From an uncultured Fibrobacter sp. (GTDB lineage Bacteria > Fibrobacterota > Fibrobacteria > Fibrobacterales > Fibrobacteraceae): a stretch of 11,814 nt of DNA. Below the pieces are notes generated by a model. It saw only the letters and a list, made by a program, of their open reading frames with translations. It had not been told where the DNA came from and searched no databases. The position numbers were made by a program, and so were the translations under genes. The stretch spans positions 1 through 11,814 of the forward strand of contig CAMZFJ010000025.1 in NCBI GenBank assembly GCA_947306025.1, in the 5' to 3' direction. This document shows, in pieces, positions 3,869-11,814 of the stretch (the first letter of the stretch is position 1; every line of letters begins with the position of its first letter).

Positions 3869-4861
3869 TTATTTGGCAACAACTTTTTTCATGGCGCTTC
3901 CTTGCTTGACCATGTAGATGCCGGTACTATGGAACTTGTTCTTAATTGCCGCGCTTAAGCTAGAGCCTTGCGTGATGCTAACTGTTCCAAGCAACTTGCC
4001 TTGCATATCGAAAACTTGTAAATTTTGATTTGATGTTGCCGCAAATTTCGGAGCGTGCAATGCTGTGCTTGCTTCGCCGGTGTAGACCTTTGCGTAAGCG
4101 AAATCGATAGTGCCAGAAGCGTTACCGTTTTCGGGGTATTGGCCGGCTTCGCCAAGGACCTTTGCTTCGTACATGGAATTGCCGAGTTCGAGTCCGAGAC
4201 TCTTCCAACCGTCAAAATGTGCCGTGATGTCGATGGTTCCGCAAGAACGCTTACTCTTGCGCACGCTAAAATATTGCGTGAACGGAGTGTTGTCGCCTTC
4301 GATGGAACCGCGCTGGACCTTGTCGACGTAGACTTCGTATGTGGCGCCGTCAACTGTGATTGTTCCGCGCAGACCGCATTCGTCACAGTTTGCCGTGGAT
4401 TTGCCGATCCAGTTCGGGCGATACGGACTCCAGTTATCGACGATATACCATTCGATGAGCGGATCCTGCGACCAGCCATAAACGCCAATGTAGGAGTAAG
4501 TCACGTTGGAGTAAGTTGAAAATTTGGGGTCGGTCAACTTGAAGTCTGCGAAAAGATGGCCGAGGTCAGTGTACTTGAGCCCGCTATTCATGCCGTAGCG
4601 GATTCCTTCACGGCAAAGATAATCGTTCACGTTGCTGAATTCGCAAGAGAACGAACCGTCTGTGTAGAACGTGGCGGAATTGTCGCCGATGTCTGCCCAC
4701 AATTCGTAATTGTAGTTTCCAATATCGTTAATGCCGTTGCTCGTGACGGTAATGCTTTCACCGCTGTGCGTTGCGGTGTTGCAAAAATCCTGAGCAAAAG
4801 CGCCCGTGGCGAAAACGCCAAACAGACCCAATGCGAAAAGGGTACGAAAACCAAACATCAT
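3869..4861 (-). CDS. GH11 endo-1,4-beta-xylanase with C-terminal sorting domain
   Basis: A 330-residue secreted enzyme that cuts beta-1,4 bonds in xylan with retention. Residues 1-23 form a signal peptide (cleavage after AFA). The GH11 jelly roll spans about 33-262. The nucleophile is Glu137 in 'YGWSQDPLIEWYIVDNW'; the acid/base is Glu238 in 'AKVLGEAGQ', after 'HFDGWKSLGLELG', the usual pre-strand motif. Residue Asp80 ('FSNVNDYL') aligns with the position that is Asn in alkaline-type and Asp in acidic-type xylanases. The C-terminal part (about 279-330, 'LQVFDMQGKLLGTV … GIYMVKQG … KKVVAK') resembles a T9SS type A sorting domain, so the enzyme is probably sent across the outer membrane. Only one catalytic domain is present, unlike the tandem-domain XynC of Fibrobacter succinogenes. 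AGGAG lies 5 bases before ATG 4861 (8 before the second ATG). Confidence 0.95.
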   Translation of the reverse strand: MMFGFRTLFALGLFGVFATGAFAQDFCNTATHSGESITVTSNGINDIGNYNYELWADIGDNSATFYTDGSFSCEFSNVNDYLCREGIRYGMNSGLKYTDLGHLFADFKLTDPKFSTYSNVTYSYIGVYGWSQDPLIEWYIVDNWSPYRPNWIGKSTANCDECGLRGTITVDGATYEVYVDKVQRGSIEGDNTPFTQYFSVRKSKRSCGTIDITAHFDGWKSLGLELGNSMYEAKVLGEAGQYPENGNASGTIDFAYAKVYTGEASTALHAPKFAATSNQNLQVFDMQGKLLGTVSITQGSSLSAAIKNKFHSTGIYMVKQGSAMKKVVAK

Positions 4862-4936: not shown

Positions 4937-4972
4937 AGTGTAGTAAGTGTTTTTACTGTGGCTCGCGCGATT

Positions 4973-5012
4973 GTATAATTATACTGAATTCGGTACAATT
5001 AACATTGTTAAT
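4973..5012. promoter_or_regulatory. AT-rich palindromes between the xylanase and the GNAT remnant
   Basis: GTATAATTATAC (4973-4984) is a perfect palindrome carrying TATAAT on both strands; on the - strand it could be the -10 box of the xylanase, about 115 bases before its start, but no good -35 accompanies it. ATTAAC/GTTAAT (4998-5012) is a second 6-bp dyad immediately after the GNAT remnant. Confidence 0.3.
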
Positions 5013-5020
5013 CGCTTCAC

Positions 5021-5289
5021 TCATAGTGCGGGTGAAGAAAGAGTTTTTTTCATACTCCAGCTTCCGATTTTCCGGCCATTATGCTTGATTTCGCATTCGT
5101 GAAAAACTTTGTAGCCGCGTTTGCTGTAAAAAGCGAGGTTTTCCCGTGAATTGGTAAATAAGGCTAACTGCTTGCCGCCACGCTCTTGTACGTATTCCTG
5201 TATATAAGTTAAAAATTCCGAAACGACGCCCTGGCCATAATCGCTCCCGCTTCGTCGAGTTCCTCGCGAGTCTGTAATCCGAATTCAAT
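5021..5289 (-). pseudogene. GNAT acetyltransferase remnant with internal deletion
   Basis: Two parts of one GNAT protein remain in two frames. The N-terminal part (5289 down to 5227) reads IEFGLQTREELDEAGAIMARA, a typical GNAT first helix. The C-terminal part (5236 down to 5021) begins GQGVVSEFLTYIQEY, which is the acetyl-CoA loop and following helix, continues through 'SRENLAFYSKRGYKVFHE' (motif B) and ends at TGA 5021-5023. The roughly 80-100 residues normally between them are absent. Bases 5227-5238 can be read in both frames (IMARA or GQG), so the deletion probably occurred at a short shared sequence. No ATG begins the N-terminal part: the codon after the GGAG-like site is ATT. A 69-residue frame through the same DNA reads nonsense. 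The gene is dead unless the C-terminal fragment is translated alone. Confidence 0.8.
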
Positions 5290-5437
5290 TTCTCCGTCAG
5301 TTTGGAAAATAAATTTTTTTAGCAAAATGCGTTGCGCAAAATGAAAAAAACATCGCCCGATTGTTCGTCAACTTTCAAATCTTGAAGAATTCAAGAATTT
5401 CAAGGTTCAGGCTAAAAAATTTTGCTTTTTGAAAATG
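5290..5437. other. Intergenic AT-rich segment
   Basis: No gene is seen. The segment contains homopolymer A/T runs and a small hairpin, CTTGAA/TTCAAG (5381-5395). It separates the GNAT remnant from the viperin operon terminator and may hold the decayed promoter of the former. Confidence 0.4.
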
Positions 5438-5460
5438 CCCCCAAGCCCTGCGCTTGGGGG
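5438..5460 (-). terminator. GC-rich hairpin after the viperin gene
   Basis: CCCCCAAGC (5438-5446) pairs with GCTTGGGGG (5452-5460), 9 bp with a 5-nt loop. On the - strand it lies 31 bases after the viperin stop and is followed by CATTTTC; on the + strand by AGGTTTTC. It is a probable terminator of the viperin operon with a short T tract. Confidence 0.65.
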
Positions 5461-5491
5461 AGGTTTTCTTGGTCGTTAAGCGTATTGCTGA

Positions 5492-6451
5492 TTATATGAA
5501 ATTGAAAATTGAATCTAAATCTGAAGTAGGGTCTGCAATATTGAAAAATTTCTTCATGGAATTGACTGCTTCCCAAGTGTAACTACCGTCGTAACGTCCG
5601 TCGAATTTGCTTTCGTTGAACTTGATGTCGTTAAGGGCTTCGGCAAAGGACACTTCCGTCAGCGGGCGGCTGTAGCTGTATTCAGCACTCCCGTTCTGGA
5701 ACAGGCGACCGTCCGGAGAAATCATCAGGTAGCTCTCTGTCATGGCGTTGTTGTCTTCAATGGCTATTTCGCAGTTGCCATTGTGATACTTTGGCTCCTT
5801 GTAATTATTGCAGATAAACGAATAAAATTTGAAGTCAGAAATGCCATTGTTTTCGCCAAACGGCATCTGTCGTAATATTTTCCACTTGTAGGGCTTGAGA
5901 GCAAGAACCGAATACAGCATTTCTTCGGAGAAATTGTACTTGTTGACAACCGTGTTGACCTTGATTTTGAGTTTCGGATTGATTTCTTGAACAAACTTGA
6001 TTTTTTCCTTGATGTCTTCGAAAGACGATGTTTTGCTGTTGCTGGCGCGACCGATTTTCAAGTTCGTTTCGTGATTAAAGGAATCAATCGAAATCCCGAC
6101 TGCAGAAATCATGTGGGCGAACGGACGGATGACCTCAAGTTGGCTTCCGTTGGTAATCATCGAAACTTCGGCGCCGTGATTCTTTGCCGTTTTTACGATA
6201 TTCCAAAGTTTTTCAGGATGCATCGCCGGTTCTCCGCCAACGATGTTGAGGCGAAAATGCTTGGGAATCATAGGTGTCGCTTCGACGTAATCTGCAATGT
6301 TTTTGACAATGTGTTCGACTTGATCGAAATCATCCCATGCTTCGTGTTGCTTGCCCCATTTGGCGAAACAGTGCTTGCAGCTGTAATTGCAGGTCTCGGT
6401 AACGTGCCAGTTGACGCATATGGGGATGGCGGCTTCTGTGTAGCTAGACAT
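5492..6451 (-). CDS. Prokaryotic viperin (pVip), antiviral radical SAM enzyme
   Basis: A 319-residue radical SAM protein. The [4Fe-4S] ligands are Cys21, Cys25 and Cys28 in 'NWHVTETCNYSCKHCFAKW', and 'GGEP' at 72-75 is the SAM-binding loop. Viperin features follow in order: 'VSMITNGS' (96-103), 'VGISIDS' (118-124), 'KIKVNTVVNKYN' (162-173, matching the FKINSVINRFN nucleotide-site strand of animal viperin), 'KPYKWKILRQMP' (186-197) and a C-terminal block 'ESYLMISPDGRLFQN' to 'YTW' (239-293). Viperins abstract the 4'-H of a nucleoside triphosphate to give 3'-deoxy-3',4'-didehydro nucleotides that stop viral RNA polymerases; bacterial members protect against phage. Which NTP this one uses cannot be told. 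AAGGAG lies 6 bases before ATG 6451. A longer frame to 6655 runs over the upstream gene and is rejected. It is the second gene of an operon, 19 bases after the small HicA-like gene. Confidence 0.93.
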   Translation of the reverse strand: MSSYTEAAIPICVNWHVTETCNYSCKHCFAKWGKQHEAWDDFDQVEHIVKNIADYVEATPMIPKHFRLNIVGGEPAMHPEKLWNIVKTAKNHGAEVSMITNGSQLEVIRPFAHMISAVGISIDSFNHETNLKIGRASNSKTSSFEDIKEKIKFVQEINPKLKIKVNTVVNKYNFSEEMLYSVLALKPYKWKILRQMPFGENNGISDFKFYSFICNNYKEPKYHNGNCEIAIEDNNAMTESYLMISPDGRLFQNGSAEYSYSRPLTEVSFAEALNDIKFNESKFDGRYDGSYTWEAVNSMKKFFNIADPTSDLDSIFNFI

Positions 6452-6470
6452 AAATTTCTCCTTGTTGGTG

Positions 6471-6713
6471 TTAAGCGATGATGACGCCAGTTGCGATGAG
6501 GAATTGGCGGATGTAGCGGTTATAATCTCTCCTAAAGTTGGCGTAAGCCCTGGGATCGCTTGGCGTACAGGGAACGATGAAGAATTTGGTTGCCCCTTCA
6601 GTCTGGTGTCGTAGAATCGGGTGTTTGGCGTGTCTTGCCAGGACCCAGCAACCACTTTTCAGCATCGTGTTACACATTTCGTTGATTTTGGAGTCGTTGG
6701 AGAGGTTTGACAT
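6471..6713 (-). CDS. Small HicA-like protein upstream of viperin
   Basis: An 80-residue basic protein not recognised with certainty. The layout is helix (about 5-20), three strands ('CWVLARHA', 'HPILRHQ', 'KFFIVPC'), then a long helix ('DPRAYANFRRDYNRYIRQFL', 53-72). This is the alpha-beta-beta-beta-alpha order of the HicA/dsRBD-like fold. The phrases 'KHPILRH' and 'VPCTPSDPRAYANFRRD' recall small HicA-related proteins of phages and bacteria, with a conserved His before strand 2. HicA toxins bind and cut mRNA; no HicB antitoxin is adjacent, so toxin activity is not assumed. Start ATG 6713 is supported by AAAGGA upstream; an extension to 6797 would cross the promoter region. It is first in the operon with pVip and may be a co-factor, regulator or separate module. 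Confidence 0.6.
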   Translation of the reverse strand: MSNLSNDSKINEMCNTMLKSGCWVLARHAKHPILRHQTEGATKFFIVPCTPSDPRAYANFRRDYNRYIRQFLIATGVIIA

Positions 6714-6750
6714 AGCTTTTAGTCCTTTTTTTAAATGAAGAAGTACACCG

Positions 6751-6801
6751 CCCATTCGGTCAAAATGGGCTCTACTGCCTATTGTTAATTTTGTCAATAG
6801 G
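6751..6801 (-). promoter_or_regulatory. Putative promoter and operators of the HicA-like/viperin operon
   Basis: On the - strand a perfect -35, TTGACA (6792-6797), is followed after exactly 17 bases by TAGAGC (6769-6774), a weak -10. Two dyads overlap it: CCTATTG/CAATAGG (6778-6784 and 6795-6801) covers the -35 and spacer, and CCCATT/AATGGG (6751-6756 and 6764-6769) covers the start-site region. A good -35, poor -10 and overlapping dyads suggest a controlled promoter, but no regulator gene adjoins it except possibly the HicA-like protein. Confidence 0.45.
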
Positions 6802-6876
6802 AAAGGAACTTTTTTAGGGAGAAAATGCTACATTGGAATGTATTAGATGTACTTGCGTTAGACAATGATTCACCAA

Positions 6877-6904
6877 GCAACAGAAAGCGGCCCTTTTCTG
6901 TTGC
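6877..6904 (-). terminator. Hairpin after the 47-residue gene
   Basis: Perfect 10-bp stem GCAACAGAAA (6877-6886) / TTTCTGTTGC (6895-6904), 8-nt loop, 18 bases after the small gene's stop on the - strand. No T tract follows on either strand, so it may be an RNA-stabilising or attenuating hairpin rather than a classical terminator. Confidence 0.5.
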
Positions 6905-6921
6905 CCGGCAAAATCAATGAA

Positions 6922-7065
6922 TTACTTTTTCTCTCCTTGGTAAAGCTTGTTGTTGGGATTCAGTTGGTTGGCATGGTTGTCCATGCGGGCTTGGTACTGG
7001 TAGTTGTTCGGGTTCATCTGATCTGCATGATGGTTAAGATTCGCTTGGGATTGATTCGATTTCAT
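6922..7065 (-). CDS. 47-residue Asn-rich protein with duplicated H-A-x-Q-x-NPNN motif
   Basis: ATG 7065 follows AAAAGGA with good spacing; the frame stops at TAA 6922-6924. The protein is hydrophilic (about a quarter Asn, many Gln and His) and consists largely of two copies of one unit: 'HADQMNPNNYQYQ' (13-25) and 'HANQLNPNNKLYQ' (31-43), linked by ARMDN and ending GEKK. From memory, NHANQxNPNN-type motifs occur in many very short uncharacterised bacterial proteins; no function is known to me. There is no signal peptide or membrane segment. The duplicated unit, the ribosome-binding site and the following hairpin support a real gene. It lies between the ankyrin gene and the viperin operon on the same strand, separated from both by hairpins. 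Confidence 0.75.
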   Translation of the reverse strand: MKSNQSQANLNHHADQMNPNNYQYQARMDNHANQLNPNNKLYQGEKK

Positions 7066-7157
7066 AGAGATTCCTTTTGTTTGTTTACTTCAACATCGAA
7101 GTATTAAGAAACTAGATTTTCTTCTTCCCAAACTCAATATGACAAAGACAGCGAGTT

Positions 7158-7174
7158 ACTCCCAAAAAATGTTT
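7158..7174. repeat. 17-bp direct repeat, copy 1
   Basis: ACTCCCAAAAAATGTTT is identical to 9627-9643. It lies after the ankyrin gene's terminator and 93 bases upstream of the 47-residue gene; the other copy lies 70 bases upstream of the ankyrin gene's preferred start. It could be a shared promoter or leader element, or the trace of a duplication or recombination site. Confidence 0.6.
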
Positions 7175-7178
7175 GAGC

Positions 7179-7207
7179 AAAAAAGCCATGGTGTATGAAC
7201 CACGGCT
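7179..7207 (-). terminator. Terminator of the ankyrin gene
   Basis: On the - strand a 9-bp stem (7199-7207 with 7184-7192, one G-U pair) is followed by six T (7184-7179). It lies 25 bases after the ankyrin gene's stop. Confidence 0.75.
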
Positions 7208-7232
7208 ATGACTTTTTAGGGAGACTTATTTC

Positions 7233-9557
7233 TTACTTGAATCGATCTCGATTTTCTTCAAGATACTTGAGAATAGAATTTGACTTCCAATAATATGCTA
7301 TTTCCCAGCATGAAATTGTAGAACTATATGGACCTGTGTTTCGTGCGGTTTGGTTTGGATTTCCGCCATGCTTTATCATTAATTCAAATAGATCAATTAA
7401 ATTCTTTTCTGCCGCCATCATAAGGGGGGTGTAACCAATAAGGCCATTGACGTTGTGTCTTTGATTTGGGTCCGCACCATTCTCCAAAAGTACTTTGGCG
7501 ATAGAGAACATTTTCTCTTTAGATAAACATTTTTGTCGCTGTTCTTTGAAATATTGAGCCACCCACTGTTTAGCCTGTTCTAACATGGGGTTGTTTTTTT
7601 GCAAAAGCATAGAACGATAAACCTCTTCATTTGTCATATTTCTAAAGAACTCGTTTCCTCGTCTTATGCCATCTAACATTTCGGGAGTCCAGGAACGCAG
7701 ATTTTGAAAATGTTTAATTATATTCGGCATAGCACTATATTGAATTGTCCTATAAAGGGGACTCTGTTGATCTGTTGATTGAATCTGGTTTACGTCGGCT
7801 CCCATTTCAATTAGTTTTTGAACGACATCAACTTCTCCTGTCAATATAGCTTGACCGAGACAGGTTAATTTCTTTTTGTTGGTTGGGGTAAGGAGAGTCT
7901 TTCGATCATGGGGATGAGAGACTATCAAATGGAAAATTTCCTTGCCTTCCTTAGGTTTAAATGGAATTGTGTTATAAACCATGCTCTCGATGGCGAACAA
8001 CAGAGCTGATTCTCCAGATGATGATAGCGCATTGACATCGACTTTCGCATCAAGCAAGATTTTTACTGCATCAACATCATTCATTTGTGTAAACCATACT
8101 AACTGCGGATAAGTCTTCCATGATATTTTAAATGGCGCTTTGTAGGGCTTTACAGGAACTTTAGGCTCTTTTCCCTCCTCAATGAATAATGGCAAATGAA
8201 CATCTGTTTTCTTGTCTTTTATTGATTCAATGTTTTTTACATCTTTTTCTGAAAAAAGAATAAAAAAGTCATTTGCCCATTGTTCAACTTCCCAATCTTC
8301 TACTATATTATCTTTGCTTCGTGAGCCCTTGTTTACATATGGAACATTGTTATAAGATTCTTTGAGAATATCCATCGGTTTTCCGAATAATCCAAAGACT
8401 ATGCCGTAGGTTTTCATCATTTTTAAGAAGGGGCGGTCTTCACAAATAGCTCCTAAGGCTAGGGCAACACGGAAAAAACTACAACTAGTCTTTTTTTCGG
8501 TGTCTATTACATAAATAGCTGCACGAACTATATCAGTTGTATAAAAAAGGTTTGGCATAACGGTCTTGAGCGTTTCTAATGCCTCATCAAATTGTCCTTC
8601 ATAAATTAAGGACAATACCCAAAGGAGATTAAATCGCCATTCTACGGCAATACTGTTGATTTGCAGTGTTGCACAAACTCTTGCGAATTGCTCTAAAGCA
8701 AAAAGCGTTGTTGGAGGGTTTTGTTGTGCGCAATATCGCACGCCATCTTGCGCACAAATAAAGTGTTTTTGTAGTAGAGAACATTTTCCAAGATGAATAT
8801 TGTCATACTTGAAATCATCGTTATTTGAAGGGGAACCCTCAATTAGTGAGTTGAAATAATCTTGAATCTTGTATACCGGTTCAGCATTTTCGGCTGTTTT
8901 TTGCAGAAGTTGCGAAGCAAATGCAATTTCACAGCATTGTATGTAATGATTTCCAAGAACATCCTTTGCCTTATTGATGACGTCAAACAGATTTCTCATA
9001 TTGGGAAGTTGCTTGCCCGCAAGCCATCGCTGGACTTTATCTCGTTCTGTATTGTGAAAACAATCGATAAACTGCGGACATTTCTTCGAAATGACATTGA
9101 GTCCGTATTGAAGAGGGTTTTCCGTCAAAAGGATTCCATTTGTAAAATTATCATCCTTGAATAGCCTTTTGACAAAGGCATAAATCGTTCCGCAGATAAA
9201 GGGGATAAAAGATTTATACAATTCATTTCTATTAGGGAAGGTTTCAGGAGTCCATCCATTAATATTTTCTTGATTGATAGTGAAAAAGTCTTCCTTCAAC
9301 TGTTGAATGAATTCCTCGCAAATGTTATAGGAAGAAACGATAGAGCCGGAACAAACTTTTGGATACTCAAACGGTAATTTAAACACTTGCTCTATTGCGT
9401 CAATCAGAGAATCAAGATTGATGCTCGAATCATTGGCTAGATGTTCTAGTTTTTTAGTGATGCCAGGGGCGGAGTCTGTGTCTAATACTTGAGCTATGAT
9501 TTGTAGTTGCCGCCCCAGAGTAGGGTAAGGTGGGTTAAATTTCATTCGTATTTTCAT
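7233..9557 (-). CDS. Ankyrin-repeat protein with unrecognised N-terminal half
   Basis: A 774-residue cytosolic protein (no signal peptide or membrane span). The C-terminal part has ankyrin repeats: about 484-512 ('VDAVKILLDAKVDVNA'), 515-548, 564-592 ('GEVDVVQKLIEMGADVNQ'), 683-703 ('AKVLLENGADPNQ'), 708-737 ('GYTPLMMAAEKN…IKHGGNPNQ') and a partial last unit to 774. The run is interrupted by an insert at about 600-680. Residues 1-470 match no family I know. Within them, 'VQRWLAGKQLPNMRNLFDVI' (175-194) resembles the recognition helix region of a Cro/C1-type HTH, and 'LLWVLSLIYEGQFDEALETL' (311-330) resembles one TPR hairpin. The start is ambiguous: ATG 9557 has AAAGGAC; ATG 9620 has TGGGAG and would add 21 residues. 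I prefer 9557. Its place beside viperin suggests accessory or defence use, but function is unknown. Confidence 0.75.
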   Translation of the reverse strand: MKIRMKFNPPYPTLGRQLQIIAQVLDTDSAPGITKKLEHLANDSSINLDSLIDAIEQVFKLPFEYPKVCSGSIVSSYNICEEFIQQLKEDFFTINQENINGWTPETFPNRNELYKSFIPFICGTIYAFVKRLFKDDNFTNGILLTENPLQYGLNVISKKCPQFIDCFHNTERDKVQRWLAGKQLPNMRNLFDVINKAKDVLGNHYIQCCEIAFASQLLQKTAENAEPVYKIQDYFNSLIEGSPSNNDDFKYDNIHLGKCSLLQKHFICAQDGVRYCAQQNPPTTLFALEQFARVCATLQINSIAVEWRFNLLWVLSLIYEGQFDEALETLKTVMPNLFYTTDIVRAAIYVIDTEKKTSCSFFRVALALGAICEDRPFLKMMKTYGIVFGLFGKPMDILKESYNNVPYVNKGSRSKDNIVEDWEVEQWANDFFILFSEKDVKNIESIKDKKTDVHLPLFIEEGKEPKVPVKPYKAPFKISWKTYPQLVWFTQMNDVDAVKILLDAKVDVNALSSSGESALLFAIESMVYNTIPFKPKEGKEIFHLIVSHPHDRKTLLTPTNKKKLTCLGQAILTGEVDVVQKLIEMGADVNQIQSTDQQSPLYRTIQYSAMPNIIKHFQNLRSWTPEMLDGIRRGNEFFRNMTNEEVYRSMLLQKNNPMLEQAKQWVAQYFKEQRQKCLSKEKMFSIAKVLLENGADPNQRHNVNGLIGYTPLMMAAEKNLIDLFELMIKHGGNPNQTARNTGPYSSTISCWEIAYYWKSNSILKYLEENRDRFK

Positions 9558-9626
9558 AATTGTCCTTTTTTTATAAAAAATACCTTCAAATTGTTTTTTT
9601 GTGGAGATTGGACGGTCCATCGTTTC

Positions 9627-9643
9627 ACTCCCAAAAAATGTTT
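9627..9643. repeat. 17-bp direct repeat, copy 2
   Basis: Identical to 7158-7174. Here it is followed on the + strand by TGGCTTTTTTAGGCA (9644-9658); near the other copy a related ACTTTTTAGGGAGA occurs at 7211-7224, and another ACTTTTTTAGGGAGA at 6808-6822. On the - strand its end supplies the TGGGAG ribosome-binding site for the alternative ankyrin-gene start at 9620. Confidence 0.6.
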
Positions 9644-9953
9644 TGGCTTTTTTAGGCAATTTTCGCTAATTTTTAGCAAGTGCGGATTCTATTGGTAATA
9701 CAAAAAAGAGAGACGTTCCTTACGAACCACGCCCACAAATTACCTCGCGCCATCAGATAGCACAATTTTTATGCCGTTCAATGACAATTTGTTTTATAAG
9801 GCGCCTACTGTTTTGCTCCTTAATGGCATGTTTCCATGCATTTCAAGGTCATTCACTTGATAATCAATCCAGACAGCGGGTTTTACAATTTCTGTGAAAT
9901 TTTTCCCCAACCTCGTAACGCCACTCCACCACTTTTTTCATATATACCCTAAC
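9644..9953. other. Intergenic region without a supported gene
   Basis: Contains a small dyad GCTAA/TTAGC (9666-9678) and the upstream region of the NYN fragment (ATATATA about 9940-9946). On the - strand a frame ending at TAA 9794-9796 reads partly protein-like (…EIVKPAVWIDYQVND…), with no start or ribosome-binding site; it may be a gene remnant or chance. Confidence 0.4.
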
Positions 9954-10085
9954 ATGGAAAAGAAAATAGCCCTTATTATCGACTGCGACAACGCCAAGGC
10001 GGACGCCATCTATGGCATCATGGAAGAGCTTTCCAAATTCGGTGAGACAAGCATTCGCTGGGCTTACGGCAACTTTTTTCGATAA
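9954..10085 (+). pseudogene. N-terminal stub of a NYN-domain (LabA/DUF88-like) protein
   Basis: From ATG 9954 the frame reads 'MEKKIALIIDCDNAKADAIY', then 'GIMEELSKFGETSIRWAYGN', then FFR and stop: 43 residues. This is the opening of a NYN-domain RNase: the strand with the catalytic Asp ('IIDCDNA'), helix 1 and the second strand ('IRWAYGN'), which family members continue with further acidic residues and often OST-HTH/LOTUS domains. All of that is missing. Homology stops at about 10074, and the remainder is not found elsewhere in the window. An in-frame ATG at 9894 adds sequence unlike the family. The break lies about 75 bases before the operator array of the ATPase gene, so insertion or deletion linked to that gene probably truncated it. 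The fragment lacks a complete active site. Confidence 0.75.
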
Positions 10086-10149
10086 GTAGGTGTGTCGAGA
10101 AATCCCAAAAACCTTGTTTTCTCCTCAAAAATAATGTATATTGTTTACC

Positions 10150-10184
10150 AAATCACGATTTACTAAATCACGATTTGATAAATC
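10150..10184. promoter_or_regulatory. Alternating AAATC/GATTT half-site array (operator or iteron)
   Basis: Five half-sites alternate: AAATC 10150-10154, GATTT 10157-10161, AAATC 10165-10169, GATTT 10172-10176, AAATC 10180-10184, with spacers 2, 3, 2 and 3. Thus AAATCACGATTT occurs twice with a 15-base period, and each adjacent pair is also an inverted repeat. The array ends 21 bases before the ATPase ATG. It most likely binds a regulator cooperatively, possibly the ATPase protein itself. Confidence 0.6.
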
Positions 10185-10205
10185 TGGCTTTCGCAGCGAG
10201 GTGAT

Positions 10206-11660
10206 ATGTTTATCGGCAGAAAACAAGAATTGCTTTTTTTGGAAGACAAGTACAAATCTAAAGGTGGACAACTTGTGGTTTTGTACGGTCGCAGGCGCGT
10301 TGGCAAGACAGAAACTCTCCGGGAGTTCTGCAAAGGGAAACCGCACGTTTTCTTCTCTTGCCGTGAGGTGTCGGACAAGCTCCAGCTTCGCAGTTTTTCT
10401 GAAAAAATGCTGCATGAGAAAATTCCTGCCTCCAATTATATTACCGAATTCGCTGACTGGGAATCTGCTTTTAAGAGCGTAATCGACTTGCCGTATAAAT
10501 CGGCCAAAAGACTGCTCGTTATTGATGAATTTCCCTACATGTGCAAAAACAACGAGAGCGTTCCCTCCATATTGCAAGTCCTTTGGGACGAATTGTTCAA
10601 AGACGAAAACGTCATGATTGTGCTTTGCGGAAGCGCCATGAGTTTCATCGAGAACGAATTACTTGCCGAGAAAAACCCGTTGTATGGCAGGGCCACCGGT
10701 ATTTATAAAATGGAAGCGATGAATTTTTACGAGGCCGCTCAGTTTTTTCCGAAATACTCAGCTCGCGATAAAATTATTGCTTATTCCATTCTTGGCGGTA
10801 TTCCGCATTATCTGCGACAATTCGATCCTGCTCTATCGCTTGACGAGAACATCAAAAGGAATATTCTTACCAAAGGTTGTGCCCTTTATAGCGAAGTGGA
10901 ATTTTTGCTGCGGCAAGAACTTCGAGAAACTCTTTTGTATAACTCGATTATAGAATCCGTAGCTTTAGGAGCGACCAAACTCAACGATATCAGTCAAAAG
11001 TCGATGATTGATGATACGTCAAAAACAAGCGTTTATCTGAAAAATCTTATCGAACTTGAAATCATTGAACGAGAATTCTCTGTTGATGAAGGAATAAAGA
11101 ATCTGGGCAATCGTAATCGCGGCTTGTATCGATTGACCGATAATTATTTTCGATTTTGGTATGCCTTCGTGTTTGCTAACTATTCTGATCTTGAAGGAGG
11201 CGACGTGAATGGGGTTTACGATTACGTAATCAAGCCCAAGTTGCATGAGTTTGCCTCTTTAGCATTTGAAACCGTTTGTCGGGAATATGTCAAGGAATCA
11301 CAGAAAATCGGAAGTTTGCCTTTCCGCTATAAACGAATGGGGCGTTGGTGGGGGAAAACAACCGTTCGTCGCAATGACAAAAAAGAAATTCAGGAAACTG
11401 AAATCGACTTGCTGGCCATCTCTGACGATTCAAGTAAATACCTAGTCGGTGAATGCAAGTTTAAAGGCAAGCCGTTTGATTATGGTGAATATCTTGATAT
11501 GGTCGCCAAATTTCAACCGCAAAAAGCAAATGCGGACATATACTATTATCTTTTTTCGGAATCTGGATTTGCAAAAAATCTTGTCGCTGAAGCAAAAAAG
11601 AATAATAATATAAAGCTAGTGGACATTGAAGAAATTGTCTTCCCCGCAAAAATGAGTTGA
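10206..11660 (+). CDS. AAA+ ATPase with DUF234 and PD-(D/E)XK-like C-terminus
   Basis: A 484-residue protein of the archaeal-type ATPase family (PF01637-like). Walker A is 'GRRRVGKT' (28-35), Walker B 'LLVIDE' (103-108), sensor 1 'IVLCGSAMS' (138-146), and 'GRATG' (161-165) holds a possible arginine finger. A winged-helix region follows at about 225-320 ('LLRQEL', 'SVYLKNLIELEIIER', 'YRLTDNYFRFWYAF'). The C-terminal domain has a nuclease-like set of residues: Glu355, Asp401 in 'EIDLLA' and Glu416-x-Lys418 in 'VGECKFKG', matching PD-(D/E)XK in DUF234-type members. These proteins are common, often multi-copy, in anaerobes; their role is unproven, with mobile-element or defence functions suspected. 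GAGG precedes ATG 10206 by 4-5 bases, and the half-site array lies just upstream. Probably monocistronic and cytosolic. Confidence 0.9.
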   Translation: MFIGRKQELLFLEDKYKSKGGQLVVLYGRRRVGKTETLREFCKGKPHVFFSCREVSDKLQLRSFSEKMLHEKIPASNYITEFADWESAFKSVIDLPYKSAKRLLVIDEFPYMCKNNESVPSILQVLWDELFKDENVMIVLCGSAMSFIENELLAEKNPLYGRATGIYKMEAMNFYEAAQFFPKYSARDKIIAYSILGGIPHYLRQFDPALSLDENIKRNILTKGCALYSEVEFLLRQELRETLLYNSIIESVALGATKLNDISQKSMIDDTSKTSVYLKNLIELEIIEREFSVDEGIKNLGNRNRGLYRLTDNYFRFWYAFVFANYSDLEGGDVNGVYDYVIKPKLHEFASLAFETVCREYVKESQKIGSLPFRYKRMGRWWGKTTVRRNDKKEIQETEIDLLAISDDSSKYLVGECKFKGKPFDYGEYLDMVAKFQPQKANADIYYYLFSESGFAKNLVAEAKKNNNIKLVDIEEIVFPAKMS

Positions 11661-11674
11661 TTGTTTACTCAAAC

Positions 11675-11690
11675 TGTCAAAAATTTGACA
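11675..11690. promoter_or_regulatory. Perfect dyad TGTCAAA-AA-TTTGACA
   Basis: A 7-bp inverted repeat with a 2-base centre, 15 bases after the ATPase stop. A 2-base loop makes it poor as an RNA hairpin, and TATATT follows at 11702-11707, so it looks like an operator for what begins to the right. TTGACA inside it is too close to TATATT (11 bases) to be a normal -35/-10 pair. Confidence 0.4.
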
Positions 11691-11710
11691 CTTTCTTTTG
11701 CTATATTCAC

Positions 11711-11814
11711 TAGACCCCCGAACGGGGTGTCTGGCTGCGGTTGTTGCCAGGCGTGTATCACGAGGGCCGTGCGGGCTGTGCTATCCAATCAAGGGTGTAT
11801 GGCTCGGTGGACCC
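11711..11814 (+). other. GC-rich, hairpin-forming segment of unknown nature (runs off the window)
   Basis: The composition switches abruptly from AT-rich to GC-rich. Local pairings include AGAC-CCC/GGGG-TGTCT (11712-11731, with a bulge) and CTGGC/GCCAG (11731-11750). Plus-strand frames are open but short, without a start plus ribosome-binding site, and none reads like a known protein. It may be the 5' end of a structured RNA or of an unusual gene. I tested it by eye against tRNA, tmRNA, RNase P, SRP and 6S RNA hallmarks and found none in the 104 bases available. Confidence 0.3.

What the first reader, a model, noticed from the sequence alone, without database searches (positions are those of the whole stretch)
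5492..6451. Prokaryotic viperin in a fibre-degrading gut bacterium
Radical SAM cluster CNYSCKHC plus the viperin-specific downstream blocks (KVNTVVNKYN, WKILRQMP, ESYLMISPDGRLFQN, YTW) identify a pVip rather than MoaA or a peptide-maturing SAM enzyme. No nucleotide kinase accompanies it here, so its substrate may be drawn from the free NTP pool. The family and chemistry are established; the activity of this copy is inferred.
Basis: partly seen in the sequence, partly recalled or inferred. Interest (0 to 1): 0.75.

Follow-up and report, generated by a model that had tools for sequence, protein, structure and literature searches.

The report
Bacterial viperin paired with HicA-like protein
A Fibrobacter-like gut bacterium carries a genuine bacterial version of the human antiviral enzyme viperin, and its gene sits behind a small HicA-like gene that in related bacteria leads other, partly viperin-derived, enzymes instead.

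Summary
The reported gene is real. It lies on the minus strand (ATG 6451 to TAA 5492, 319 aa) and is a prokaryotic viperin (pVip): NCBIfam NF038283 295 bits against a cut-off of 180, the 30 best PDB fold matches all viperins, a tree that splits it from MoaA, and viperin-type site residues kept. No nucleotide kinase was found in the window.

Nineteen bases upstream, same strand, is an 80-aa HicA-like gene. HicA beside pVip is published (Gerdes 2024, classes 9 and 10). A HicA-like gene adjoins 40 of the 80 pVip loci examined.

New here: in Fibrobacteraceae the HicA-like gene also leads other operons. A 3.3-kb block (ankyrin-repeat gene, small ORF, leader, most of hicA; 87.6% identical) is followed by pVip in the window but by another radical-SAM gene in genome G035. 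In three genomes the slot holds a viperin descendant that lost its cluster and SAM motifs yet evolves under constraint, followed by that radical-SAM gene. The window's island fills a xylanase-tex gap that seven relatives leave empty.

Nothing was assayed. Antiviral activity, RNase activity of the HicA-like protein and their cooperation are inferred.

The parts
5492..6451 (-). pVip, 319 aa, radical-SAM nucleotide dehydratase (viperin family)
   Evidence: NF038283 295 bits; PADLOC PDLC02903 292 bits; AF2 model pLDDT 84.8, pTM 0.84; PDB fold matches ranks 1-30 all viperin; trees; site residues
6471..6713 (-). HicA-like small protein, 80 aa, stop codon 19 nt before the pVip start
   Evidence: PADLOC PDLC02910 HicA-like 50.1 bits, E 4.5e-14; no Pfam or NCBIfam match at E 0.1; 21 database relatives; AF2 pLDDT 94.2, alpha-beta-beta-beta-alpha; HicA-like beside pVip in 40 of 80 genome loci
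6778..6801 (-). Inverted repeat CCTATTG-N10-CAATAGG in the hicA leader, possible operator
   Evidence: Sequence; kept in L115, imperfect in L113. Function inferred only; no consensus promoter was reported in this leader
6922..7065 (-). Small ORF, 47 aa, with repeated NPNN motif
   Evidence: Similar ORFs near HicA-like genes in L110, L113, L115, L122, L140 and beside the ankyrin gene in L198, L199; no PHROG or Pfam match
7233..9659 (-). Ankyrin-repeat protein, 774 to 808 aa depending on the start codon
   Evidence: Pfam Ank_2 E 8.5e-16; PADLOC Ankyrin PDLC02908 35 bits; shared with L115 inside the 87.6% block; a relative, 29% identical over 386 columns, lies directly behind a HicA-like gene in a pseudomonadote; but in G028 and G066 it occurs without HicA-like
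4956..11671 (.). Approximate extent of the inserted island between GH11 and tex
   Evidence: In 7 of the 9 GH11-ortholog loci fetched (L181-L186, L188) the conserved stretch window 11672-11814 lies 165-205 nt from the end of the GH11 match; the next gene there is tex-like by my reading
3869..4861 (-). GH11 xylanase, left flank of the island
   Evidence: PF00457 E 9.8e-37; 98% identical to the copy in G088
11672..11814 (+). Conserved right flank, promoter and leader of the tex-like gene
   Evidence: 89-96% identical in L181-L186, L188 and L130; followed by a 796-aa tex-like ORF in L181

Best explanation
The gene encodes a prokaryotic viperin, read from a presumptive two-gene operon hicA-like/pVip on an inserted defence island of a Fibrobacter-like genome. 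pVip should cleave SAM at its [4Fe-4S] cluster and use the 5'-deoxyadenosyl radical to turn an NTP into a 3'-deoxy-3',4'-didehydro-NTP, which ends phage transcripts (inferred from the family). The HicA-like protein most likely binds or cuts RNA, and pVip works beside it or keeps it in check (inferred from gene linkage). The slot behind hicA is exchangeable between genomes (shown by sequence).
For: Family, fold, trees and site residues. HicA-like gene 19 nt upstream. HicA-like adjacent in 40 of 80 pVip loci by a domain-distance test, 34 of 80 by a stricter ORF test. In 299 sampled pseudomonadote genomes HicA-like was found at 3 places: one beside an intact pVip, one beside a broken pVip, one beside an ankyrin-repeat gene. 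Exchange: window 6495-9787 is 87.6% identical to L115 (G035) and the homology ends at the 3' end of hicA, where pVip (window) or another radical-SAM gene (L115) follows. That radical-SAM gene is in 10 of 111 Fibrobacteraceae genomes, 9 of which have HicA-like within 1.6 kb upstream on the same strand. Empty insertion sites.
Against: Nothing was assayed. HicA-like is in 31 of 111 Fibrobacteraceae genomes but pVip in only 10, and a subgroup (L123-L129) has no convincing co-directional gene behind it, so HicA-like is no obligate pVip partner. 5 of the 10 Fibrobacteraceae pVip genomes have no adjacent HicA-like gene. Fold matches of HicA-like to HicA structures are weak. No consensus promoter was reported upstream of hicA, and the hairpin behind pVip was scored as a terminator only on the opposite strand.
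Confidence: 0.8

Rival explanations
1. Toxin-antitoxin reading: HicA-like is the toxin, and pVip (or the cluster-less viperin descendant) is its antitoxin or keeper, so that phage attack on pVip or on nucleotide pools frees the toxin.
For: No HicB-like gene was seen in the window. A viperin descendant without cluster and SAM motifs is kept behind HicA-like in three genomes with dN/dS 0.13-0.30, which suggests a role without catalysis. In Proteobacteria the two genes mostly overlap by 4 nt.
Against: HicA-like also occurs with no viperin behind it (L115, L121, L132, L137) and apparently alone (L123-L129). Toxicity was not tested, and the cluster-less protein might serve the radical-SAM protein instead.
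Confidence: 0.25
2. Solo pVip: the viperin acts alone, and the HicA-like gene is merely a co-travelling island gene.
For: Half of the 80 loci and half of the 10 Fibrobacteraceae pVip genomes have no adjacent HicA-like gene. Solo pVips were shown to protect E. coli (recalled, Bernheim 2021; not held).
Against: HicA-like is rare (2 of 299 pseudomonadote genomes) yet adjoins 40 of 80 pVips, in both gene orders.
Confidence: 0.2
3. Not a viperin but MoaA or a peptide-maturing radical-SAM enzyme.
For: Shares the radical-SAM core; MoaA structures appear from Foldseek rank 33.
Against: MoaA model 58.6 bits against a cut-off of 284; tree split with SH-aLRT 100; no SPASM match reported by Pfam; MoaA C-terminal cysteine positions are not cysteine here.
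Confidence: 0.01

Closest known systems
Prokaryotic viperins (pVip; NF038283)
   Same: Full-length family match over cut-off, CxxxCxxC, viperin-specific residues, viperin fold
   Different: Not assayed; nucleotide product unknown; C-terminal tail of about 30 residues beyond the model, mostly low confidence
HicA class 9: hicA upstream of a pVip gene (Gerdes 2024, PMC10865869; passages seen)
   Same: Gene order hicA then pVip, adjacent
   Different: The passages seen do not mention Fibrobacter, an ankyrin-repeat gene, or exchange of the pVip for other genes; its supplementary tables were not available to me
PDC-M51A of PADLOC-DB (candidate defence protein)
   Same: L115's radical-SAM gene in the same slot matches it with 225.6 bits
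   Different: It is not in the window; PADLOC's other M51 components were not seen; no paper holding 'PDC-M51' was found
Mouse and Trichoderma virens viperins with bound CTP and SAM/SAH (6q2p, 9dgw)
   Same: Fold (TM 0.69-0.71 by query length) and site residues
   Different: About 25% identity; no membrane-anchoring segment apparent in this 319-aa protein (by reading)

Membership tests
Prokaryotic viperin (pVip) | Curated family model over cut-off | tested here: met
   NF038283 295.1 bits, cut-off 180
Prokaryotic viperin (pVip) | CxxxCxxC cluster motif and GGEP SAM motif | tested here: met
   C21, C25, C28 and G72-G73-E74 in 69 of 69 viperin rows; P75 kept in the window and 57 of 69
Prokaryotic viperin (pVip) | Viperin-specific residues distinct from MoaA | tested here: met
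   N14, H16, N173, K191, S240, Y241, R286 in 69 of 69, different in 5 of 5 MoaA rows
Prokaryotic viperin (pVip) | Placement in a tree with a MoaA outgroup | tested here: met
   MoaA split SH-aLRT 100; window among Fibrobacter pVips
Prokaryotic viperin (pVip) | Viperin fold | tested here: met
   Foldseek PDB ranks 1-30 all viperin, best E 6.5e-18
Prokaryotic viperin (pVip) | Makes a ddhNTP and protects against phage | not testable with these tools
   Needs enzyme and phage assays
HicA class 9 (hicA upstream of pVip) | HicA-domain gene adjacent and upstream of pVip | tested here: met
   6471-6713 minus, 19 nt gap; PADLOC HicA-like 50.1 bits
HicA toxin | HicA fold and sequence family | tested here: inconclusive
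HicA toxin | Conserved histidine between strands 1 and 2 | tested here: met
   H31 invariant in 20 of 20 aligned rows, between strands 23-27 and 33-36; that this is HicA's catalytic position is recalled
HicA toxin | RNase activity or toxicity | not testable with these tools
   Needs expression
Kinase-linked viperin | Adjacent or fused nucleotide kinase | tested here: not met
   No kinase match among the window proteins scanned; a P-loop kinase-like ORF lies behind pVip in G005, G013 and G017 instead (by motif only)

The most novel reading that the evidence does not exclude
A modular defence family headed by a TPSD-type HicA-like protein, in which one slot behind hicA is filled interchangeably by an active viperin, by a B12-type radical-SAM protein (PDC-M51A), by a catalytically dead viperin descendant plus that radical-SAM protein, or by a helicase. 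The dead viperin implies that viperin has a second, non-catalytic role here, perhaps holding HicA-like in check or scaffolding it.
Probability: 0.35. Interest if true: 0.75.

Novelty: new variant of a known kind. Interest (0 to 1): 0.5.

Why it matters
pVips are studied mainly as single enzymes or with kinases, and why a HicA-like gene so often sits beside them is open (Gerdes 2024 asks it). The Fibrobacteraceae loci offer natural swaps: the same ankyrin-HicA-like head with a live viperin, another radical-SAM enzyme, or a viperin that has lost its catalytic motifs. Comparing them would show whether HicA-like is a toxin, an RNA-binding helper or a passenger, and whether viperins have a role beyond making chain terminators.

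Full report
IDENTITY. The ORF at 5492-6451 is on the minus strand, 319 aa. It scores 295.1 bits with NF038283 (cut-off 180) and 58.6 bits with MoaA TIGR02666 (cut-off 284.05); PADLOC's best model is 'Viperins not associated with kinases', 291.9 bits. Solved relatives by sequence are viperins of T. virens, N. vectensis and mouse at E 2e-23 or better, with two distant radical-SAM enzymes far below. An AlphaFold2 model from 20 sequences has pLDDT 84.8 and pTM 0.84; residues 1-5 and 308-319 are poorly predicted. Foldseek against the PDB lists viperin chains at ranks 1-30 (best E 6.5e-18); MoaA first appears at rank 33.

PLACEMENT AND SITE. A tree of 74 rows (53 of the 80 genome loci, thinned by me, plus 5 Fibrobacteraceae loci, 9 database proteins, the window, one fungal viperin, 5 MoaA) puts the window among Fibrobacter pVips; MoaA splits off with SH-aLRT 100 (quick method; the fungal row has a very long branch). 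A careful tree of 34 rows pairs it with P0022, 97% identical. Fifteen non-cysteine site positions are the same in 69 of 69 viperin rows (68 distinct), and seven of them differ in all 5 MoaA rows. Their role in binding the nucleotide is recalled, not computed.

HOW TIGHT IS THE LINK. Among 80 pVip loci of genome contigs (best 80 of 92 relatives), a HicA-like gene lies within 400 nt on the same strand in 40 (34 by a stricter ORF test). In Proteobacteria it mostly follows pVip with a 4-nt overlap; in most Fibrobacter loci it precedes. In 299 evenly drawn pseudomonadote genomes the PADLOC HicA-like model was found at 3 places in 2 genomes: beside an intact pVip (L189), beside a broken pVip (L191), and beside an ankyrin-repeat gene (L190/L192). 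Of 111 Fibrobacteraceae genomes, 10 have pVip over the cut-off. HicA-like precedes it in G001, G004, G030 and G059, follows it in G002, and is absent nearby in G003, G005, G013, G017 and G026; G005, G013 and G017 have a P-loop kinase-like ORF behind pVip (motif only). HicA beside pVip, in both orders, was described by Gerdes 2024 (PMC10865869; abstract, outline and passages seen), who also says that others had noted it; so the pairing itself is known.

AN EXCHANGEABLE SLOT. HicA-like is in 31 of the 111 genomes (35 places), mostly without pVip. Behind it I found pVip (window, L113, L120, L130, L141); a 417-422 aa radical-SAM protein, directly (L115, L121) or after other ORFs (L109, L110, L116, L138); a 299-aa viperin descendant followed by that radical-SAM protein (L111, L112, L134); a helicase-like protein (L132, L137); other genes (L114, L131, L135, L136); or nothing convincing (L123-L129). 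The radical-SAM protein matches PADLOC candidate PDC-M51A with 225.6 bits and Pfam Radical_SAM; its B12-binding part is only weakly recognised (E 0.0046, below cut-off) and its best NCBIfam models are methylcobalamin-type enzymes, below cut-off. It is in 10 of 111 genomes, and 9 of these have HicA-like within 1.6 kb upstream on the same strand; G028 has none. The sharpest case: window 6495-9787 and L115 (G035) are 87.6% identical over 3295 columns, covering the ankyrin gene, the NPNN ORF, the leader and nearly all of hicA; the similarity then ends and pVip or the radical-SAM gene follows.

A VIPERIN WITHOUT ITS CLUSTER. The 299-aa protein of G026, G063 and G080 aligns with pVip along its length, but CNYSCKHC reads as DSLGFSLC-like (one of three cysteines left) and GGEP is replaced. 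Its only NCBIfam match is NF038283, 54.2 bits, below cut-off. Pairwise dN/dS is 0.13-0.30, so it is not decaying freely. In a careful tree it sits inside the Fibrobacter clade that holds the HicA-linked pVips (99/97), on a very long branch, so its exact place is unsure. It was found in 3 of 111 genomes. This suggests that a viperin scaffold can be useful behind HicA-like without radical chemistry; whether it acts on HicA-like or on the radical-SAM protein is open.

THE ANKYRIN GENE. The 774-808 aa gene upstream has close relatives in G035, G028 and G066 (87-92%) and distant ones in G024 and G105 (38-39%). It comes with the NPNN ORF in G035, G028 and G066; G028 and G066 have no HicA-like match, so ankyrin and HicA-like are not inseparable. 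A relative (29% over 386 columns) is directly behind a HicA-like gene in a pseudomonadote. PADLOC has models named Ankyrin and HicA-like with accessions close to its pVip models; I could not see its system rules.

THE ISLAND. GH11 copies at 85% identity or more occur in ten genomes. In 7 of the 9 loci fetched the window's right flank lies 165-205 nt from the GH11 match, that is, the 6.7 kb between are absent; the next gene is tex-like by my reading. L130 (G030) holds its own hicA-pVip insert in this gap. In L187 (G088, GH11 98% identical) another island with a different HicA-like gene starts at the same side. In L180 the right flank was not found. The window's pVip is thus cargo of an insertion hot spot.

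MECHANISM. Shown: gene, family, fold, residues, pairing, exchange, empty sites. Inferred from the viperin family: ddhNTP formation and chain termination of phage RNA. Inferred from linkage: joint action with HicA-like. Whether HicA-like is a toxin held by pVip, an RNase that aids it, or an RNA-binding helper cannot be decided here.

NOVELTY. A pVip in Fibrobacter is not new: database names already call relatives viperin in Fibrobacter, and S85 has one (P0090). hicA-pVip is published. Searches for 'pVip' with 'Fibrobacter' (none), 'viperin' with 'HicA' (2 papers), 'PDC-M51' (none), HicA with ankyrin and anti-phage (1 paper on P. gingivalis phages, listing only) and HicA, radical SAM, phage defense (65 with two of three terms, 12 listed) showed no account of the exchange or of the cluster-less viperin; the library holds open-licence papers only.

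Noticed in passing
L111:6775-7674, L112:8096-8995, L134:6890-7789: Viperin descendant lacking two of three cluster cysteines and the GGEP motif, conserved in three Fibrobacteraceae genomes (dN/dS 0.13-0.30), between HicA-like and a PDC-M51A-type radical-SAM gene.
   Followed up: partly
window 6922-7065: 47-aa ORF with NPNN repeats, about 98% conserved in DNA neighbourhood shared with L115 by eye; similar ORFs recur near HicA-like or ankyrin genes. A different small hydrophilic ORF (53 aa) precedes HicA-like in L192.
   Followed up: partly
window 4955-11671: Insertion hot spot between GH11 xylanase and a tex-like gene; empty in seven relatives, filled with other islands in L130 and L187.
   Followed up: yes
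window 9954-10085: Short ORF end beginning MEKKIALIIDCDNAKADAIYGIMEE, looks like the start of a truncated NYN-type protein (by eye); matching stretches of about 120-150 bp occur in L110, L116, L124, L125 and L134.
   Followed up: no
window 5020-5330, minus: Pieces resembling a GNAT acetyltransferase C-terminus in more than one frame behind pVip, probably a decayed gene (by eye).
   Followed up: no
window 10206-11660: AAA ATPase with DUF234 (PF01637, PF03008), PADLOC candidate PDC-S27 (205 bits).
   Followed up: no
L191: A second pVip beside a HicA-like gene in the genome that also holds L189; its reading frame is broken in this record.
   Followed up: partly
L081, L082: Two of five full-length pVip hits in the viral collection also carry an adjacent HicA-like gene; whether these contigs are truly viral was not checked.
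   Followed up: no
P0090: The cultured F. succinogenes S85 has a pVip (52% identical to the window's); close relatives L003 and L107 have no adjacent HicA-like gene.
   Followed up: partly
L199:6905-9723: In G066 the same ankyrin-NPNN head is followed by a 73-aa ORF and a helicase-like gene of the kind that follows HicA-like in L132 and L137.
   Followed up: no
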